Of a stretch of 64,000 nucleotides of DNA, positions 37,742-46,374 are shown in pieces. Every line of letters begins with the position of its first letter. Position 1 is the first letter of the stretch. The stretch is from NCBI GenBank assembly GCA_037039685.1, contig JAWNGF010000007.1:682001-746000 (forward strand). Direction: 5' to 3'. The notes beneath the pieces were generated by a model. It had not been told where the DNA came from and made no database searches. It worked only from the letters and a program-made list of their open reading frames with translations. Source of the DNA: Ceratobasidium sp. AG-K. Its lineage: Eukaryota > Basidiomycota > Agaricomycetes > Cantharellales > Ceratobasidiaceae. Both the position numbers and the translations under genes were made by a program.

Positions 37742-40059
37742 CTAGCTATCATGAGTTAACCAAACCATACGAAGTTCCACCAGCTCAGCAGGTGCACAAC
37801 AAAAAGATAGTGTTGCGCGTGATGATCCTGCGCTTACAAACTCAGACATGAGAGCGGCCGGTTCCGCATGACCCCTGTATTCCAGCGAGCAATCGAAGGT
37901 ACTCTCCGAGAGCCGCGACGAAGTGGGAAATGTAGGGGCTTTGGTCCGGAAAGGTATCACAGTCTTTATAACAGAGCACCGGTGCACACGGTGATTCCAC
38001 TGATCCAGAGACGAGCATACAACCAGGAATGTGTGGGGAATTACGACGAGCCGGTTCAACCCGGAGGTATTTAGCGCCAACGCGCACCACGGCCAGACGC
38101 GCGTAAGTTCACTAGCATTCTCTTCAAATGGACCCGCCAACCCATCAAGATTCATCGGTTCTTGCATGTATGAAGTTGTACCTGAAATATATTGTTAGCC
38201 TGATCTGGGTAAATTGCCAGTGTTTTTTTCTCTTTCGAAACACCAATGGGAAGATGCACACGTACAGTCTTTCGATCTCCTTGTCCTTACCATCCAGGGG
38301 CTCCGAGGACAACCCGAGAATGGCATTTAGCCGTTCTCGTGCTCCATGTATCGCAATCCCTCCCTGATGTATCTAGCGGCCGTCGAAGCGAAAATAAAAA
38401 GAATGCCAGATAGCTCGACCAAAGCCGAGACTTGGGAAGAGGTGAGATCGACGGCTGTAAGCTCGGCTCGAAGGTAAACCTCAATGTCATGCTTGATCAT
38501 CTGCGCATCGAGGTCGTGTAGGACGAGCCGAGCGTCGAGGTTGTCACTACCCCGGGCCATCATCCGGCGGTGGATCTCGGGCTCGGGCCGGCTGGATATC
38601 AGTAACCGAACGGAAGTTGAGAGTCGTTGGTGTATGAGGATAACACGTCCAGCATCTGTCCGACACTGTCTTCGTCATCGCATTCGTCCAGGCCATCAAT
38701 CACAACAACCAGGTTGTTAGGAAGCGCGTGCTTAACTCGAGCCAGAGGCTTGATGAGCAATGTCTCAAACTGAACCTGCAGTGTACGTTTAGGCACGTCG
38801 GGTTCTGCCTCAAGGATGGTCGAAAGGGCATGGCGAAAAGGGCGCGAAAACCGGGCGAGTTGATAAGCAATGGACGGGAATATGAGCCCGACGTTACGAC
38901 ACTCGGGGATTAGCCTAGCGCAGAAGAAGCTTGCTCCCAGCTCCGCAGACTTTTCGAGTTCGGCGCAGAGAGTGGCGGCGATTGTGGTCTTACCAGTTCC
39001 GGCCATTCCACTCATCCAGTAGATGTCTTCCGCATTGGGTGATTTGTCACGAGACCACTCCAGTAGCTTGGCAAGCTCGTTTTCACGGGTTCCAGGTGTA
39101 CAGACCCTGCGCTGGAGGTCTTCTGACTCGGCCGAGTTGTATACTGCGGCCATGGTTGGCATCAGCGCCTTCAGGCGGGTTTCCTATAATTTCTGATAAA
39201 CAGCGCGCTTTTATGCCGCCAACGGACGTACTATTTCCAAGTTCCCGACCGTTTCCCACATGTTTGTATTCGCGTTCGCCTGCCTTTCAATTAGCCATTG
39301 ACTCGACTCGGATCAAGGTCCTTACCGTGAGACGTTCCAGATAACCTTGTATGCGCAGATACGACTCCATTAGATCATCAGCATCGTCCAGGATCTCTAA
39401 ATGCCTCTTGATGGCACCCTTGGCATTTTTCTCTTGAACCATCTTTAGCTCGTGGTCCAGGCCACTATCCTCAAACCTATCAGTCTCGTCCACCAATCCA
39501 ACCAAACGACTTACATGCATAGATTCATCATGCTCGACGTCAACTTTGATCCAGCCGCATTCTGAATATACCCACTCAAGTCCCCAAGCAATGCATCCAA
39601 TTTGGCAAGTAGTTCCATGTAATCCTTGCGCCCCTTTGAGGCATTCTACTCGGAGTGTCAGCAACAACATGCAAATATAACCCTGATACGCACCTCGAAT
39701 ATCTCTATACACGAACTCAACCCATCAATTGCCGACTTGAGCGGCGGAAACAAACCCGCGCTCGAATCGACGACCTTGAGCAATGTCTTGAGGCCGGAAC
39801 GTCCGACCGACTTGACAGTCGATGAATCAACCAGACTCGAGAGGGTGTTGAGTGATCCGATCTTGGAGGACTTGGAGGAGCCTGTCGTGATGGAAAGTAT
39901 GTCGGTCGTTGAGAGAGGAGGAGAGGGTGTTGGAACACGAGGTAGAGGGCTTAACGTCCGACTGGACGGAATAGCAGTCAAGGTAGGAGTGGGCGGCCCC
40001 ATACCCCAGCGCCGCTTCAACCCGTCTTTGACGTGCAAGTAACGATCCCGAAGAGGCAT
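37742..40059 (-). pseudogene. NACHT STAND protein, copy E, truncated relic without WD40
   Basis: Leader MPLRDRYLHVKDGLKRRWGM, linker, RSGLKTLLKVVDSSAGLFPP and helices are good, and the NACHT begins well (SGMAGTGKTTIAATL, LVVVIDGLDECDDED). A one-base loss near 38,611 breaks the sensor region, where LPVRLLISSRPE is expected. A second loss near 38,337 breaks MEHEERLNAIL: this copy has GCCGTTCTCGTG where copy F has GCCGTTCTTCGTG. After EIERLY the next family exon is missing. Instead, beyond an intron-like gap, a diverged fragment reads QEPMNLDGLAG...ENASELTR...LNTSGLNRLVVIPHTFL, matching QEPMTVDGLAG...LNISEPNGLVTTLHASF of copy D. It then fades out. No WD40 or cap follows. A dead copy, or at best a source of a short N-terminal/NACHT product. 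Confidence 0.8.
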
Positions 40060-41767
40060 GGAGGATACGCCGTCTCAGGGTGGTCAACTCACGCCTTTTA
40101 TTCCAAGCGAGGGGCAGGCGCTAAAAGATCAGCATCCTGATCTGCAGGGTCGTCAAGTGATCGGGTCGAAACAGGAACTGCCCTGGTGTTCCCGGAGAGC
40201 CTCCGAACACCGATCACCACGTGATCCTTCAGCTAAATTCCCTATTGGTGGAATCTAGTAGATTTGCAGTGCATATGAGGCAATTGAACTATTTTTGTGC
40301 GCTTCGTGCCTGGAGCGAGTGTTGGGGGCGAGGTAACTGAATACACTGCAACACGTCAGCACTGGCTATACCACTGCCATGATCCGCGAGCCTAACCGAG
40401 TCATGGCCAGGCTATCATCTACCTGATAGGCACGACTGCGCAGCCCAGACTCCATCGTGCGGCTAGGGTGGCGTAGGATACGATCGCACCGTCGCATCAT
40501 GACTCCATGAAGACACTTACTATGAATGCCTTGCTGTCACCATGATCAATATACCTGCTGCAAAACATATTATTATGAGAACCCCTGATGTAGGACGACC
40601 CTCACCAATCATAAGCTCAGACAATATGTGATATTCGAATTTACACCAACCAAGTAAATACTAGCGCAAGGATCCGGGATGCAGCCGAGTAGCGGAAAGC
40701 CATTATAGGAGGGCCGTGTCTGCCTAATTCCGGGGCTGGTTTAGTTCAACGCTTTCTATTAAGTCTGGGAGGACGAGGTCGGATAATGAACATGGGGATG
40801 CGCGCAAGCAGGCACGATCTTAAGTAATATGCAATTGCTTAGTCATGACCAGAGTCAACCCATAAACAAACAACAGCCGCCCCGTCGTGAGTGACTAGAG
40901 AGTACGACTTGTTTGTACGTGGTGCGACACCGGGCTCATAAAGCCCCCGGGGGGCTTAATCAACACAGGTGGGTAGGAACTATGAATGTCGTGGGCTCCC
41001 CAGACATGGAGCCAAACCATCGCGATTATACGCTGCGCTGTTTTATTGTAATGGATTCTGAATATAGTCGTCTAGTTTGCCCGTAGGGAATGTTGCAGGA
41101 AGCTAAGGGAAAACTAGGGCGGGATAATCATTAATACGTACATGAACTCAGACCAACGCTCTCCAAGGTCACCATATCCAAAAGTATAACGCCCGGTCCA
41201 AAATATATGGCCATGTCTGTAAATTCGGACAGCCAAAACAAACCTGTGGGAGATACTGGATATTCGAAGATACCATCGCCATATAGGACTAGTACCTTTG
41301 GCGCTTGAACCCCTTGACTGCAACGATATTGCTCGATCTGGTGGACTACATGGCTTGAGGCTACAAAATACCAAGAGCGGCTTGTCTTGAAGACTGGGAG
41401 CCAGTCCGATTATTCGATATGGAAGCGATTGATTTATGCGCATATATGCGTGGTATCTCCCGCCATTGTAGTTATGCAAGCACGGAGTGGAATCGTCCAC
41501 AGTTTCAGGTATGGCCTATGAACTCGTCTACTGAACCGTTAACCTTGATGCCAGGCAAGTATCCTGCGGCCGAGGAGTGGGCTCGAGCCACAATTTCGTT
41601 CTAGAAATACCATGGAAAGCCTATATAAGATACCAATGACACTATCCCTTGAATTATCCTAGATCGGAATATCCCCTACAAAAACAACGAAGTACACAAG
41701 GTGCAGAAATTTATAATACACGAAGGGCGAAGCGATACGAAGGGCTAGAGAATTGACACAATGGATC
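40060..41767. other. Gene-poor stretch left of the pheromone gene
   Basis: No long exon-like frames. A minus-strand ORF at 41,114-41,500 has faint protein-like text (YTFGYGDLGERWSEFMYV) that I cannot assign. Includes the 5' flank of copy E. Confidence 0.35.
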
Positions 41768-41820
41768 CTGCAAGTGGGAAAGTCAGTAATCAGGTTTACT
41801 CATGAATATATACAACTTAC
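41768..41820 (-). other. Probable 53-nt intron in the 3' UTR of the pheromone gene
   Basis: On the minus strand, 31 nt after the TAA stop, there is a consensus donor GTAAGT, a branch-like CTGAC and the acceptor TTTCCCACTTGCAG. Size and signals match the coding introns of the neighbouring genes. Confidence 0.5.
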
Positions 41821-41851
41821 GAAGGGAAGGTTTGTTCGATGACACTTGCAA

Positions 41852-41974
41852 TTATGCAATCACGCAGCTCTGGCCGCTGCCGCCGGAGTCTCCGCCGCGC
41901 GCAACTGGGTCTTCAAGGTCGCCAGTTGCGGGTGAGGTGGGATAGAAGGAAATGATGTTGAACAAGGAGTCCAT
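41852..41974 (-). CDS. Lipopeptide mating pheromone precursor (CaaX, a-factor type)
   Basis: A 40-codon ORF, MDSLFNIISFYPTSPATG... ending GGSGQSCVIA and TAA. Basidiomycete pheromone precursors are usually 35-80 residues, often start MDS/MDT followed by hydrophobic residues, carry a charged cleavage site in the middle and end in CaaX. All of these are here: MDS start, aromatic/hydrophobic residues 4-11, an acidic/Arg stretch at residues 20-26 (LEDPVAR), a Gly/Ser-rich mature part and CVIA, the same box as yeast a-factor. In the known pathway Cys37 is farnesylated, VIA is removed and the Cys carboxyl-methylated. The lipopeptide is exported and read by a STE3-type receptor of a compatible mate. 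A TATA-like box lies about 140 nt upstream. Chance occurrence of all traits is possible but unlikely. No receptor gene is seen in the window. Confidence 0.8.
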   Translation of the reverse strand: MDSLFNIISFYPTSPATGDLEDPVARGGDSGGSGQSCVIA

Positions 41975-42110
41975 TTTAATATCACGTGTGGCGATGGATA
42001 AGAGGGGATATGGTTTTAGTGGAGGAGCAGGCCTGTAACGTAGTGGATGAGAGGCTGAAGTGCGGGAGAGTGGGCTACTATCTTGCCGACCAAGGACGCC
42101 CTCAGTGTAA

Positions 42111-42120
42111 CTTTATACCT
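42111..42120 (-). promoter_or_regulatory. TATA-like box of the pheromone gene
   Basis: The minus strand reads AGGTATAAAG about 140 nt before the ATG, followed by pyrimidine-rich sequence typical of fungal 5' leaders. Assigned by motif and position only. Confidence 0.45.
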
Positions 42121-42158
42121 CCTACCATTTCGGACGGTAAGGATGGACCGCCGAGATC

Positions 42159-42293
42159 ATGAGTGACGCGTTGTTGGTTTCCCCCGAAACTCCCATTCGT
42201 CCGGACATCCATATTGATTTTGTTGTATCAAAAAGTTATAGCAATGATGAAGGGCCTCTACAGTCCCAAAGTGACCCAAACACCATATCTTAA
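42159..42293 (+). CDS. Small divergent ORF (44 residues), uncertain
   Basis: Begins MSDALLVSPETPIRPDIHID and ends with TAA; soluble and acidic, with no CaaX box. It starts 185 bp from the pheromone ATG on the opposite strand, so the two would share one intergenic promoter. Length alone does not distinguish it from a chance ORF, and no family is recognised. It could also be a first exon. Confidence 0.2.
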   Translation: MSDALLVSPETPIRPDIHIDFVVSKSYSNDEGPLQSQSDPNTIS

Positions 42294-44389
42294 GCGCCAG
42301 TGCTTAGGGCCGATCTCGGCCGCTCTTCCCTTGTTCACAACTTGCTGACGCACTCGGTGGCCGGGCTTGGCACACGTTCAAATAACGTCTCATGGAGAAG
42401 CTCAAGTGATTGATTAGTCTCCCCTCGATGTTGTCCACCAGTGGTGATAAGTGTCAGTTTCTTTTGCTCGATGGCCACTCTTTCTAGACTCAAGTGTTCA
42501 ATAGAAGCGTACGGTCCATCACTTGGCGTGTTTCCCTTTAACCATTAATTATTGATATATACAGGGCTTGAGGTCCACACCCCCTCGCTAAGATGACGCC
42601 GGAGTGAAGATCTTATCGGCTGAGGTAGTCTGGGCGAAACTGGCTCTTGGCTGAGGGGCGTAGAGGTCGACCCCAAACCCAGTGGTCAGCTAAGCCAGAA
42701 CGGGTTGATCCCGAACACGCCGGTGATGAGGTAAGACAAAGGGGTGTACATGACATGAACCACTAAATTGGCCTTTCTTGGGGAAATGCGGAATTTTCCG
42801 ATGGACCGTGAGCAATATCGTGAATTGGTTCCACGTACTTCGACTACTATTCTGCGCCCGAGGGTCGAGTGCTGTACAAATGAAGGAATTGTCCAAAAAA
42901 GTCTTGTTTTACAGAAACGGTGAATGACGTAGTTGAAAATGTGGCTGTTTCGGCGTTTAGAACAGCCCATGGGACGGTGCAACCCTAGGCAAGGTAACAA
43001 GATCGAGGCATGCAGATGGGATGAGACTGACGCTCAAGTGGTTCAAATGATCGACAGTCTCTTGAACCACCTATTAGGGCAGCGAATGGGGTTTTGACCG
43101 ATTGCAAACACACGCTCGTTTATGCTCTGTTCAGGATGGATATGTTACGTAGGGCCTAGGCAATCGTGGTCGAATAAAGACTTCGGGGCAAGGGGTGCCC
43201 AGCTGCGACATCTTCCGACATCGCAACTTCGCTCCCAAGGTACCACTTTGACCGGTTCAGGGCTAGGTCCAGGTCCATCAGCCAATGTGACATGACACTT
43301 CGTTGAACCTGGCAGAACGAGAGCTAGTCCAGGTACTGTAACATTTCTGAAGGCATCTTCCATGTCTGACCCTTGCTCAGGCGAGCGGAATCAGGGGATC
43401 ACCCTCGTTGATAGTAACTTCCACGAGCAGAATAATGGCCGACAAGCAGCCGGCAGAAGTGATGGTCGGTGGGCGACTTCCTGCTCCAAGATTTAGGGTA
43501 TAGCGGAGGCATTCGAGTTCGACCCCGTATAGATTGTGATTACTTTGTTTAGACCGGCTTCCATCGAGATCAAGTCGCAGTTCCTGTTGGAAGTGCATAC
43601 TCGACATGTTCTCAGGAAGAGGAGGGGTGGACTGGTTCCTGATTTGGCGTACAAGGTGTGCCGGTACGAACAACCAATTAATAGTCTCGCTTCGGGGAGA
43701 GTTGGTGAAAACCCGTGTAATGACGTGAGAGACCAAGTAGCACGTCACGTCCTCACGCACTGCCACAATCCGCGGGACTCGCCAAGCCCTTTCTGGTCCG
43801 CAGCAATCGACCGATATAATTGGCTAAAGGACCTACCTTACCGTGACTGTGCTACGAGATTAGCTACAGCCCAAGTAGCAGGCTATTTGAGTGCCAAGTG
43901 GGTTTCATCAAAATCGGGCGAGAAATTCGTGCTATTAGCCCCTGATATCGGGTTCATGAATTTCCAGTCCCCGCCATTCTCTACGCAGGTGATACAAAAA
44001 GTATTAGGAATATTGTATGTAGCGGTAAACAGCTTAATATCCTAGAAGCCATTATGCTATGATCAATGTTGGGGAACGGTATGCACGTCACTCAGAGTCG
44101 GCCTTTGGACAACGCCGAGCCCGTTATTGGTGTCCATTAGAGCTCTGTCATATCCACGCGCATACACTGTACTGAACCCGGTGCCCGGTTCTCAAAGCTG
44201 AATAAATTTCTTGTGTGTGCTCCCGCTGCTTCCGACAAGGGCGAGGGGGAGGGACTTTAGATCTGATGAGTATGGCGGCACGGTGATCGTGGATTCTGAC
44301 ATTAACTTTACTCATGATGTTCTGGCAACTATACACTGCGCGTCCCGGCCTTTGATTACTCCAAAGCGCGATCGCTGGGCATGCGTCAA
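42294..44389. other. Gene-poor stretch between the pheromone gene and NACHT copy F
   Basis: Several overlapping ORFs on both strands. The longest is plus 43,536-44,045 (169 codons), overlapped by a 129-codon minus frame. None shows family likeness, codon-like exon borders or zinc/cysteine patterns. I scanned by eye for further CaaX-ending short ORFs and found none I would support. Confidence 0.35.
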
Positions 44390-46374
44390 AGTTGGGTCGC
44401 AGTGAAAGGAAGCCGAGCGCTTGTGGTCAAGCATATAGTCAGAAAAGGAAGGATGAAGAATCGTGACCAGTCCATTAGACTCGGAAATGTTCACAACAGA
44501 TGATAGTGACCGTAGCAAGGTGTCGACATGATGCCCATTCTTCAGCCCCAAGAGACCGGCCAGCGCGCCCACGGTCACTGACTCTTGTAAGCATATAATC
44601 GTATCTAGGATCATTTTGAGACGAGTGTGGGTGAATTTGCTCATGCTCTCGTTGTTGAAGACCGCCTGAAGGATGGATGTGTACAGTCTGTCCATTTCCT
44701 TGTCTTTGCCGTCTGTAGGTTCCGAGGACAGCCCGAGAATGGTATTCAGCCGTTCTTCGTGTTCCATGTAGCGTATTCCGTCCTTGATGTACCTAACAGC
44801 TGCGGAAGCAAAAATAAAGAGACCCCCAGACAGTTCGACTAGAGCGGAGATTTGCAAAGGGCTAGCGTCAATACTCGCGAGCTCGGCCCAAAGGTATGTC
44901 TCAATGTCGTGGTTGACCACTTGCGCATCCGAGTCATGTAGGACAAGTCGGGAGTCCAAGTTGCTGCCAACCCGGGCCATCATCCGGCGATATATCGTAG
45001 ACTCGGGTCGGCTGGATATCAAGAACCGCATTGGGAGTGTGGGATTGGCGGTATAAGAAAGCAATACGTCGAGGAGCTGTCCAACGTTGTCCTCCTTTTC
45101 GCATTCGTCCAGCGCGTCAATGACGATCACAAAGTCTTCAGGCAGCGTTTGCTTGACTTGGGTAAGAGGTCTGACGAGTAGCGTCTCAAACTGCGCGCGC
45201 ACTACACGGGAATGCGCGTCGGGTTCTTCCTGGAGAATAGCGGATAGAGCGTGACGAAAGGGGCGCGAAAACCGAGCAAGCTGGTATGCGATCGAAGGGA
45301 GGATCAGCTTGACGTTGCGACATGCGGGGATCAACCTGGAACAAAAGAAGCTGGCACCAAGCTGTGCGGATTCCTCGAGCTCAGCACAGAGGCTGTATGC
45401 GATTGCGGTTTTGCCAGTTCCGGCCATGCCATTCATCCAGTAGATATCTTGCACATTGGGCACCTTTTTGTGAGCCCAATCCAGTAGCCGGCCGAGCTCT
45501 CGTTCACGAGTACCAGGTGTACAGGCTCTTCGCCGGACGTCTTCGGACTCGGCCGAGTTGTACACCGCCGCCGGGGTCGGCATCAATCCTCTGAGGCGGG
45601 CTTCCTATTGACATACACTCAGTGACCCATCGCTCTCACACCAACATCATTTACCGTTTCCAAATTGCTAACCGCCTCCCATATACCTAGATTCGCATTC
45701 ATCTGCTCAACCTCAGCAGCTCGCTCGATTTGAAATATGAAAAACTCCTACCCTGAGACGCTCGAGATAACCTTGCACACGTCGACAAGACTTCATTATA
45801 TCAGCCGAATTGTCCAAGGTCTCCAAACCTCTTGCGCTTTCCTCTTGAACGGTCTTGAGTTCTTGATCCAGACCACTGCGTGGCCCATCAGCTATATACC
45901 GGCCTAGCCGGAGAGACGACTCACATGCATAGATTCATCATACTCGCCGTCATCTTCGATCCAGCTCCGCTTGCAATGTATCCACTCAAGTCGGCTAAAA
46001 TTATATCCAACTTGACGAGTAACTCCATATACTCCCTGCGTCCTTTGGAGGCATTCTAACTTGCGAGGTTAGCCAACGAATAAAAAATACAACAGCCCTC
46101 ACCTCGAATATCTCGATACTCGCGCTCAACCCACCCACCGCCCACTTGAGCGGCGGAAATACCCCAGCGCTCGCGTCGACGACCTTGAGCAAGGTCCTGA
46201 GTCCAGACCACCCGGCTGATCTGATAGTCGACTGATGGACAAGGCTCAAAGGGGCATCGAGCATGTCAATTCTGTGAGTGGGGTTGGGTTCGGCCGTAAA
46301 CGGCAGGGTATCTGTAGACATTTAAGTGAAGATGGACTTGGGAACGTCGAGAGCTTCAGAATTCTGTCGCGCAT
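44390..46374 (-). pseudogene. NACHT STAND protein, copy F, truncated after the NACHT bridge
   Basis: Helical domain SGLRTLLKVVDASAGVFPPL, helices (CRRVQGYLERLR), NANLGIWEAVSNLET, NACHT with NGMAGTGKTAIAYSL, DFVIVIDALDECEKED and MRFLISSRPE, bridge HPSFSDYMLDHKRSASFHCD. Homology stops abruptly at THAQRSRF near 44,395, in the middle of the bridge. A short unrelated tail and a stop follow, with no WD40 or cap. At the other end the usual leader is damaged: MRDRILKLSTFPSPSSLK starts at an ATG at 46,374 and then the frame changes into STDTLPFTAEPNP. The NACHT core itself is open. It may be a dead copy, or a short NACHT-only protein made from the ATG at 46,321. Confidence 0.8.

What the first reader, a model, noticed from the sequence alone, without database searches (positions are those of the whole stretch)
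41852..41974. A hidden 40-residue CaaX mating-pheromone gene inside an immune-type gene array
Seen: an ORF MDSLFNIISF... with a charged centre and the end GQSCVIA-stop, with a TATA-like box upstream and a spliced-looking 3' UTR. Known: basidiomycete pheromone precursors are short, start MDS/MDT, and end in a CaaX box that is farnesylated. Inferred: this is such a gene. It is far below usual ORF length limits, so automatic annotation would miss it. If real, it links a mating (P/R or B-type) locus, or a stray pheromone, to a cluster of NACHT-WD40 allorecognition-type genes: two self/non-self systems in one interval.
Basis: partly seen in the sequence, partly recalled or inferred. Interest (0 to 1): 0.9.

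Follow-up and report, generated by a model that had tools for sequence, protein, structure and literature searches.

The report
Receptor-unlinked pheromone-like peptide gene
A 40-residue reading frame lying between immune-type genes of a fungus is one of five related short genes that are predicted to be trimmed and lipid-tagged into pheromone-like signals, and because none of the five lies near a detected pheromone-receptor gene it is likely a non-mating signal gene rather than part of a mating-type locus.

Summary
Window 41852-41974 (-) encodes MDSLFNIISFYPTSPATGDLEDPVARGGDSGGSGQSCVIA, with a TATA box and a well-formed 3' UTR intron. It is not chance: searches of the same genome found four paralogues (two on contig C4, two on C9), each MD...C-V-[IV]-A. 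Nine of ten pairwise dN/dS values are 0.09-0.38 (the tenth is saturated). All five share a TATA box, a leader motif and a 49-56-base intron signal starting 27-33 bases after the stop. The gene is very probably real and of lipopeptide-pheromone type.

The mating-locus part is not supported. About 45 STE3-like receptor loci (fragments included) were found; none in the window, none on C4 or C9, the nearest on C7 1.28 Mb away. No pheromone-like ORF was seen beside the 34 of 45 receptor loci that I could read (short flanks). [quoted passage not shown]

In the window copy the usual ER/DR processing dipeptide reads AR. The NACHT link is suggestive only (3 of 5 copies within 10 kb of a scored NACHT match, post hoc). 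No expression data were available.

The parts
41852..41974 (-). 40-residue CaaX precursor ORF (MDSLFNIISF...GQSCVIA), stop included
   Evidence: four paralogues; dN/dS
41864..41896 (-). predicted mature peptide segment GGDSGGSGQSC (residues 27-37); inferred from the R-GG boundary and the CaaX box
   Evidence: sequence; alignment A2; processing scheme in PMC8305134 section 3.5
42112..42117 (-). TATA box (TATAAA), 143 bases upstream of the ATG; a TATAA lies at -126 to -147 in all five copies
42046..42085 (-). leader block CAAGATAGTA...CTCTCCCGCACTTCAGCCTCTCATC; CTTCA and T[CA]TCATC are kept in 5 of 5 copies, the first part is diverged in C9a
   Evidence: MAFFT alignment
41768..41820 (-). predicted 53-base 3' UTR intron (GTAAGT...CTGAC...CAG), 31 bases after the stop; counterpart in all five copies
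41631..43706 (-). about 2.1-kb block, 72% identical to C4:3995891-3998015, which carries a paralogue; a further 65% identical piece lies at 40907-41221
   Evidence: 65-83% identity in 100-base bins
44312..45604 (-). flanking NPHP3_N/NACHT ORF; no WD40 match in the 7 minus-strand ORFs of 60 codons or more between it and the CaaX gene
37742..39183 (-). flanking NPHP3_N/NACHT stretch that appears broken over several frames (or spliced); the NPHP3_N match is in 38599-39162
   Evidence: continuity of the other frames is my reading

Best explanation
The ORF at 41852-41974 (-) is one of five dispersed, homologous short genes in this genome that likely encode non-mating-type, pheromone-like lipopeptide precursors. 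Predicted route: the precursor is cut near residue 26 and at the CaaX box; Cys37 would be farnesylated, the last three residues removed and the cysteine carboxymethylated, giving GGDSGGSGQSC-farnesyl; the peptide would then be exported and bind one or more of the genome's STE3-like receptors for hyphal self or neighbour sensing rather than mate choice. Shown: the ORF, its paralogues, coding constraint, shared TATA, leader and 3' UTR intron signals, and no detected receptor within 1.28 Mb. Inferred: expression, splicing, processing, farnesylation, receptor binding and the non-mating role. Its place in a NACHT array probably reflects duplication into a fast-changing region.
For: Five paralogues found by homology. 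C7 versus C4b: codon-position differences 5/6/21, dN/dS 0.11; C7 versus C9a 9/9/23, 0.09 (synonymous sites close to saturation); the other unsaturated pairs 0.16-0.38. TATA box and 49-56-base 3' UTR intron signal in 5 of 5. Agaricus precursors are 44-54 aa, unlinked to its receptors, G-rich, with EST-supported 3' UTR introns in at least three of four; Coprinopsis and Laccaria consensus GGGSGNGAYC and GGGSGNNAYC (PMC8305134, passages, section 3.5). Pycnoporus: the mutually similar precursors are the ones that resemble presumed non-mating peptides (PMC4101180, passages). 45 STE3 loci, none within 1.28 Mb; no pheromone-like ORF near the 34 of 45 STE3 loci read.
Against: The window copy has AR where three paralogues have ER/DR, so its processing may be altered. 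Of the predicted mature lengths only the window copy and C4b (11 residues each) fall near the published 11-13; C9a would be 9, C4a 16, C9b 22. No Pfam Pheromone (PF08015) match in any of five members, and no homologue in the protein collection, although that collection holds Rhizoctonia proteins. No expression data. A mating pheromone unlike this family, or lying beyond the short flanks read, could have been missed, and 11 of 45 STE3 loci were not read. Weak, probably chance STE3-like tblastn pieces lie in three of the five CaaX loci (best E 0.003 in the C4b locus); the best one contains a stop.
Confidence: 0.72

Rival explanations
1. It is a mating-type pheromone gene that has moved away from its receptor, or mating in this species uses pheromone genes unlinked to receptors.
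For: Its 123-nt length falls in the range of the Rhizoctonia Mfa genes reported beside the receptor (120-132 nt from the printed coordinates, PMC7884421 section). Five of the six homeodomain matches lie on C4 at 3.15-3.55 Mb, about 0.37 Mb or more from the two C4 paralogues.
Against: No STE3 within 1.28 Mb; five mutually similar copies, whereas B-mating-type precursors are described as very distinct (PMC4101180); Rhizoctonia Mfa lies beside Pra. The Mfa sequences themselves were not seen.
Confidence: 0.15
2. The window copy is a decaying, non-functional paralogue of an otherwise working family, carried along in a duplicated block inside a degenerate stretch of the NACHT array.
For: AR instead of ER/DR; 72% identical 2.1-kb block shared with C4; neighbouring NACHT ORFs apparently broken or lacking WD40; dN/dS 0.34 against C4a.
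Against: Frame, CaaX, TATA and intron signal all intact; dN/dS 0.09-0.16 against C4b, C9a and C9b.
Confidence: 0.2
3. A CaaX microprotein unrelated to pheromones, for instance a small membrane-anchored intracellular protein.
For: No Pfam match; one member (C9b) has a longer tail and no ER/DR.
Against: Length, MD start, a central ER/DR in three of five copies, G-rich end and 3' UTR intron signal together match published pheromone-like precursors.
Confidence: 0.08
4. Chance ORF.
For: It is short.
Against: Four paralogues with the same frame, promoter and intron signals.
Confidence: 0.01

Closest known systems
Agaricus bisporus pheromone-like peptide precursors (PMC8305134)
   Same: Short precursor, MD start, G-rich predicted peptide of 11 residues (published 11-13), CaaX, 3' UTR intron, unlinked to receptors
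   Different: Window copy lacks ER/DR at the predicted cut; its end GQSC differs from the GNGAYC/GNNAYC type of C. cinerea and L. bicolor that three of the Agaricus peptides resemble; five copies instead of four; only sequence signals for the intron here, EST support there
Rhizoctonia Mfa (P/R locus, PMC7884421)
   Same: Related host group by NACHT hits; same gene length range (120-132 nt from printed coordinates)
   Different: Mfa is adjacent to a Pra receptor; here no receptor within 1.28 Mb. Sequences not compared (supplement not readable)
Pfam PF08015 Pheromone
   Same: Fungal pheromone precursors with a CaaX end (recalled description of the model)
   Different: No match of any of five members

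Membership tests
Agaricomycete non-mating-type pheromone-like precursors | Short ORF with MD start and C-terminal CaaX | tested here: met
   5 of 5 copies, 38-50 aa, C-V-[IV]-A
Agaricomycete non-mating-type pheromone-like precursors | Charged dipeptide (ER, DR and the like) at processing distance | tested here: inconclusive
   VER, VER, VDR in three copies; VAR in the window copy (an ED pair lies four residues earlier); LDF in C9b. The published list is open-ended ('such as')
Agaricomycete non-mating-type pheromone-like precursors | G-rich mature peptide of about 11-13 residues | tested here: met
   Predicted GGDSGGSGQSC, 11 residues (sequence); cleavage itself untested. C4b 11, C9a 9, C4a 16, C9b 22
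Agaricomycete non-mating-type pheromone-like precursors | Intron in the 3' UTR (reported for Agaricus) | tested here: met
   Sequence signals in 5 of 5; splicing not testable here
Agaricomycete non-mating-type pheromone-like precursors | Not linked to a mating-type receptor | tested here: met
   Nearest STE3 match 1.28 Mb; none on C4 or C9
Agaricomycete non-mating-type pheromone-like precursors | Expressed, farnesylated, exported peptide | not testable with these tools
   No transcripts or peptide data
B-type (P/R) mating locus | STE3 receptor adjacent to the pheromone gene | tested here: not met
Pfam PF08015 Pheromone | Match to the model | tested here: not met
   0 of 5 members; the genome search was also empty but its controls were silent

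The most novel reading that the evidence does not exclude
This fungus runs a greatly enlarged, mating-independent lipopeptide communication system: about 45 dispersed STE3-like receptor loci and a small set of unlinked pheromone-like ligands, some of them kept inside NACHT arrays so that diffusible self-signals and intracellular non-self sensors diversify in the same genome compartments.
Probability: 0.12. Interest if true: 0.8.

Novelty: new member of a known kind. Interest (0 to 1): 0.45.

Why it matters
The function of most non-mating STE3-like receptors of basidiomycetes is obscure and their ligands unknown (PMC13308352, passages; PMC8161036, passages). A genome with about 45 such receptor loci and five clearly related candidate ligand genes gives a concrete ligand set to test against them. 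The case also shows how a length cut-off in gene finding could hide a conserved gene family.

Tried and rejected
Mating (P/R) locus: rejected, no receptor detected nearby. Co-localisation of the CaaX genes with NACHT genes: 3 of 5 within 10 kb of a scored NACHT/NPHP3_N match, shift-permutation p 0.005 (0.22 at 5 kb, 0.035 at 20 kb); but I had seen the distances before choosing the cuts, C7 and C4a share duplicated DNA, the lengths of C9, C10, C12, C13, C14, C16 and C17 were assumed in the script, and only part of the candidates were scored (89 of 270, 150 of 340, 99 of 367; 214 loci after merging). STE3 loci gave p 0.34, 0.20 and 0.08, and P450 loci, used as a control, 0.44, 0.07 and 0.03 at 5, 10 and 20 kb. 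For P450 I entered 92 of the 115 rows; the 23 left out are neighbouring exons within 1.5 kb of an entered row, so the 91 loci should not change. I do not claim the association. Co-duplicated NACHT neighbours: the two C4 neighbours are 55% identical to the window neighbour and rank 27th and 28th of 99 rows, the query itself included, so no special kinship. A conserved second gene in the 2.1-kb block: no ORF stands out, and the ORFs scanned there have no Pfam match below E 0.06. Homologues in other species by sequence: none found. Rfam: no match at 41000-44400. No solved structure matches.

Full report
What is there. The minus-strand ORF at 41852-41974 is exactly as described: 40 residues, MDS start, CVIA end. 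Upstream lies TATAAA at 42117-42112, and downstream a predicted 53-base intron at 41820-41768.

Is it more than chance? Yes. A DNA search of the window's own genome (G000, 53.6 Mb, 17 contigs; the window is C7:682001-746000) gave two further matches on C4. The protein gave five places in all: C7:723855-723974, C4:3916494-3916613 (C4b), C4:3996129-3996263 (C4a), C9:236909-237022 (C9a) and C9:325477-325572 (C9b; full length 325423-325572). Searching with the two C9 proteins returned the same five places. The paralogues read MDFVSAI...GQSCVIA, MDNLFNI...GQSCVVA, MDSIFDI...SQGCVIA and MDSIFDI...NQNSCVVA. Invariant in all five: M1, D2, I7, A16, G18, E21, D22, P23, G27, G28, G32, C37, V38 and A40 of the window copy. 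Ten pairwise codon comparisons give dN/dS 0.09-0.38 in nine; the tenth (C4b-C9a) is saturated at synonymous sites, and the two C7-C9 pairs are close to it (pS 0.74 and 0.72). The most similar pair at synonymous sites, C7-C4a, has 0.34 and its flanking DNA is about as similar as the CDS, so that pair alone would prove little.

Gene anatomy is shared. A TATA box sits 126-147 bases before the ATG in five of five copies. A leader motif (CTTCA, then T[CA]TCATC) follows in five of five. A 49-56-base intron with donor GTAAGT or GTAGGT, a CTRAY branch and an AG acceptor begins 27-33 bases after the stop in five of five; the same rule, written after I had seen the copies, fires in 3.7% of random 150-base stretches. 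Apart from C7-C4a, blastn between copies finds only pieces of up to 136 bases, mostly at the gene itself, so the promoter and intron look retained rather than merely recent.

Receptors. PF02076 gives 110 exon-level matches, which cluster into 45 loci on C1, C2, C3, C5, C6, C7, C8, C11, C13, C14 and C15; 8 of the 45 rest on a single match, and other merging distances give 66 or 37. Several are in tandem or mirrored pairs with equal scores, so the number of distinct genes is smaller. None is on C4 or C9, none is in the window, and the nearest on C7 is 1.28 Mb away. tblastn of 18 STE3 exon peptides against the window found nothing; against the five 3.1-kb CaaX loci it gave weak hits in three (E 0.003-0.064, 13-57 residues) and none in two, while three STE3 regions used as positive controls gave strong ones. 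CaaX scans: 20 regions of 9.9 kb covering 24 STE3 loci, one of them with only 0.1 kb on one side; 20 regions of about 3.4 kb that add 8 loci with about 0.8 to 1.9 kb of flank (strict pattern only); and 2 more loci in 3.7-kb regions, so 34 of 45. Besides the window ORF, marked four ORFs with a strict CaaX end; none starts with MD and two overlap STE3 exons. No pheromone-like ORF was seen in these scans. ORFs with introns in the coding part, or further away, would be missed.

Immune-type surroundings. The window holds a minus-strand NPHP3_N/NACHT and WD40 array. The two NACHT ORFs that flank the CaaX gene are a 430-codon frame at 44312-45604, with no WD40 match in the seven minus-strand ORFs of 60 codons or more between it and the CaaX gene, and a stretch at 37742-39183 that appears broken over several frames. 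Such genes are common in the genome. Distance from the five CaaX genes to the start coordinate of the nearest scored NACHT match: 2.3 (C7), 5.9 (C4b), 9.3 (C4a), 76 (C9a) and 135 kb (C9b). The association is suggestive but post hoc (see Tried and rejected).

Host. Of 745 homologues of a window NACHT protein, 120 are listed; every listed row that names an organism names Rhizoctonia or Ceratobasidium (40-47% identity), and rows without an organism reach 54%. So the host is probably a member of, or close to, Ceratobasidiaceae; the species is not identified.

Comparison with what is known. Agaricus bisporus has four precursor genes of 44-54 aa, three on chromosome 1 and one on chromosome 2, not linked to its receptor genes, G-rich, with 3' UTR introns in the transcripts of at least three (PMC8305134; I saw passages and section 3.5). 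Pycnoporus has four mutually similar precursors that resemble presumed non-mating peptides, besides three very distinct ones (PMC4101180, passages). Rhizoctonia has Mfa next to Pra, while further Pra-like genes lack adjacent Mfa-like genes (PMC7884421, passages, section). In S. commune, two non-mating receptors were proposed to serve hyphal self-sensing, with self-pheromones as possible ligands (PMC8161036, passages). I found no paper describing this five-gene family in Rhizoctonia or Ceratobasidium in the listings of searches; most subscription papers are not in that library.

A caveat on the window copy. Three paralogues have ER or DR just before the G-rich segment; the window copy has AR and C9b has DF. 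The window gene may be processed differently or be losing function. The intact frame, CaaX box, promoter and intron signals speak for function.

Verdict. Very probably a real gene and a member of a known kind of pheromone-like precursor, in an unusual setting: many STE3-like receptors and no receptor-linked ligand detected. Not a mating locus on this evidence.

Noticed in passing
G000 contigs C1, C2, C3, C5, C6, C7, C8, C11, C13, C14, C15: About 45 STE3-like loci (110 exon matches to PF02076; 8 loci rest on one match), an apparently large receptor set; several pairs have equal scores in tandem or mirrored positions.
   Followed up: partly
G000:C5 (copies about 519 kb apart), C8 and C15 (mirrored), C2/C11, C13/C14: Large repeated blocks inferred from paired match positions; either real segmental duplications or haplotypes joined in the assembly.
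   Followed up: no
G000:C4:3149536-3546584: Five homeodomain (PF05920) matches with equal scores on the same contig as two of the CaaX paralogues, about 0.37 Mb or more away; possibly the HD mating-type genes.
   Followed up: no
window 41631-43706 and G000:C4:3995891-3998015: A 2.1-kb block at 72% identity that includes the CaaX gene and about 1.7 kb upstream without a recognisable gene.
   Followed up: partly
window 37742-39183 and 44312-45604: The NACHT ORFs on either side of the CaaX gene appear broken or lack a following WD40 ORF, unlike other members of the array.
   Followed up: partly
L027 212-743 (+): A HEAT-repeat-like frame beside the C9a paralogue resembles deoxyhypusine hydroxylase (recalled from the sequence, not searched).
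   Followed up: no
L025 701-835 (-): A weak STE3-like tblastn piece (E 0.003, 45 residues, one stop) about 0.7 kb upstream of the C4b CaaX gene; chance or an old receptor fragment.
   Followed up: no
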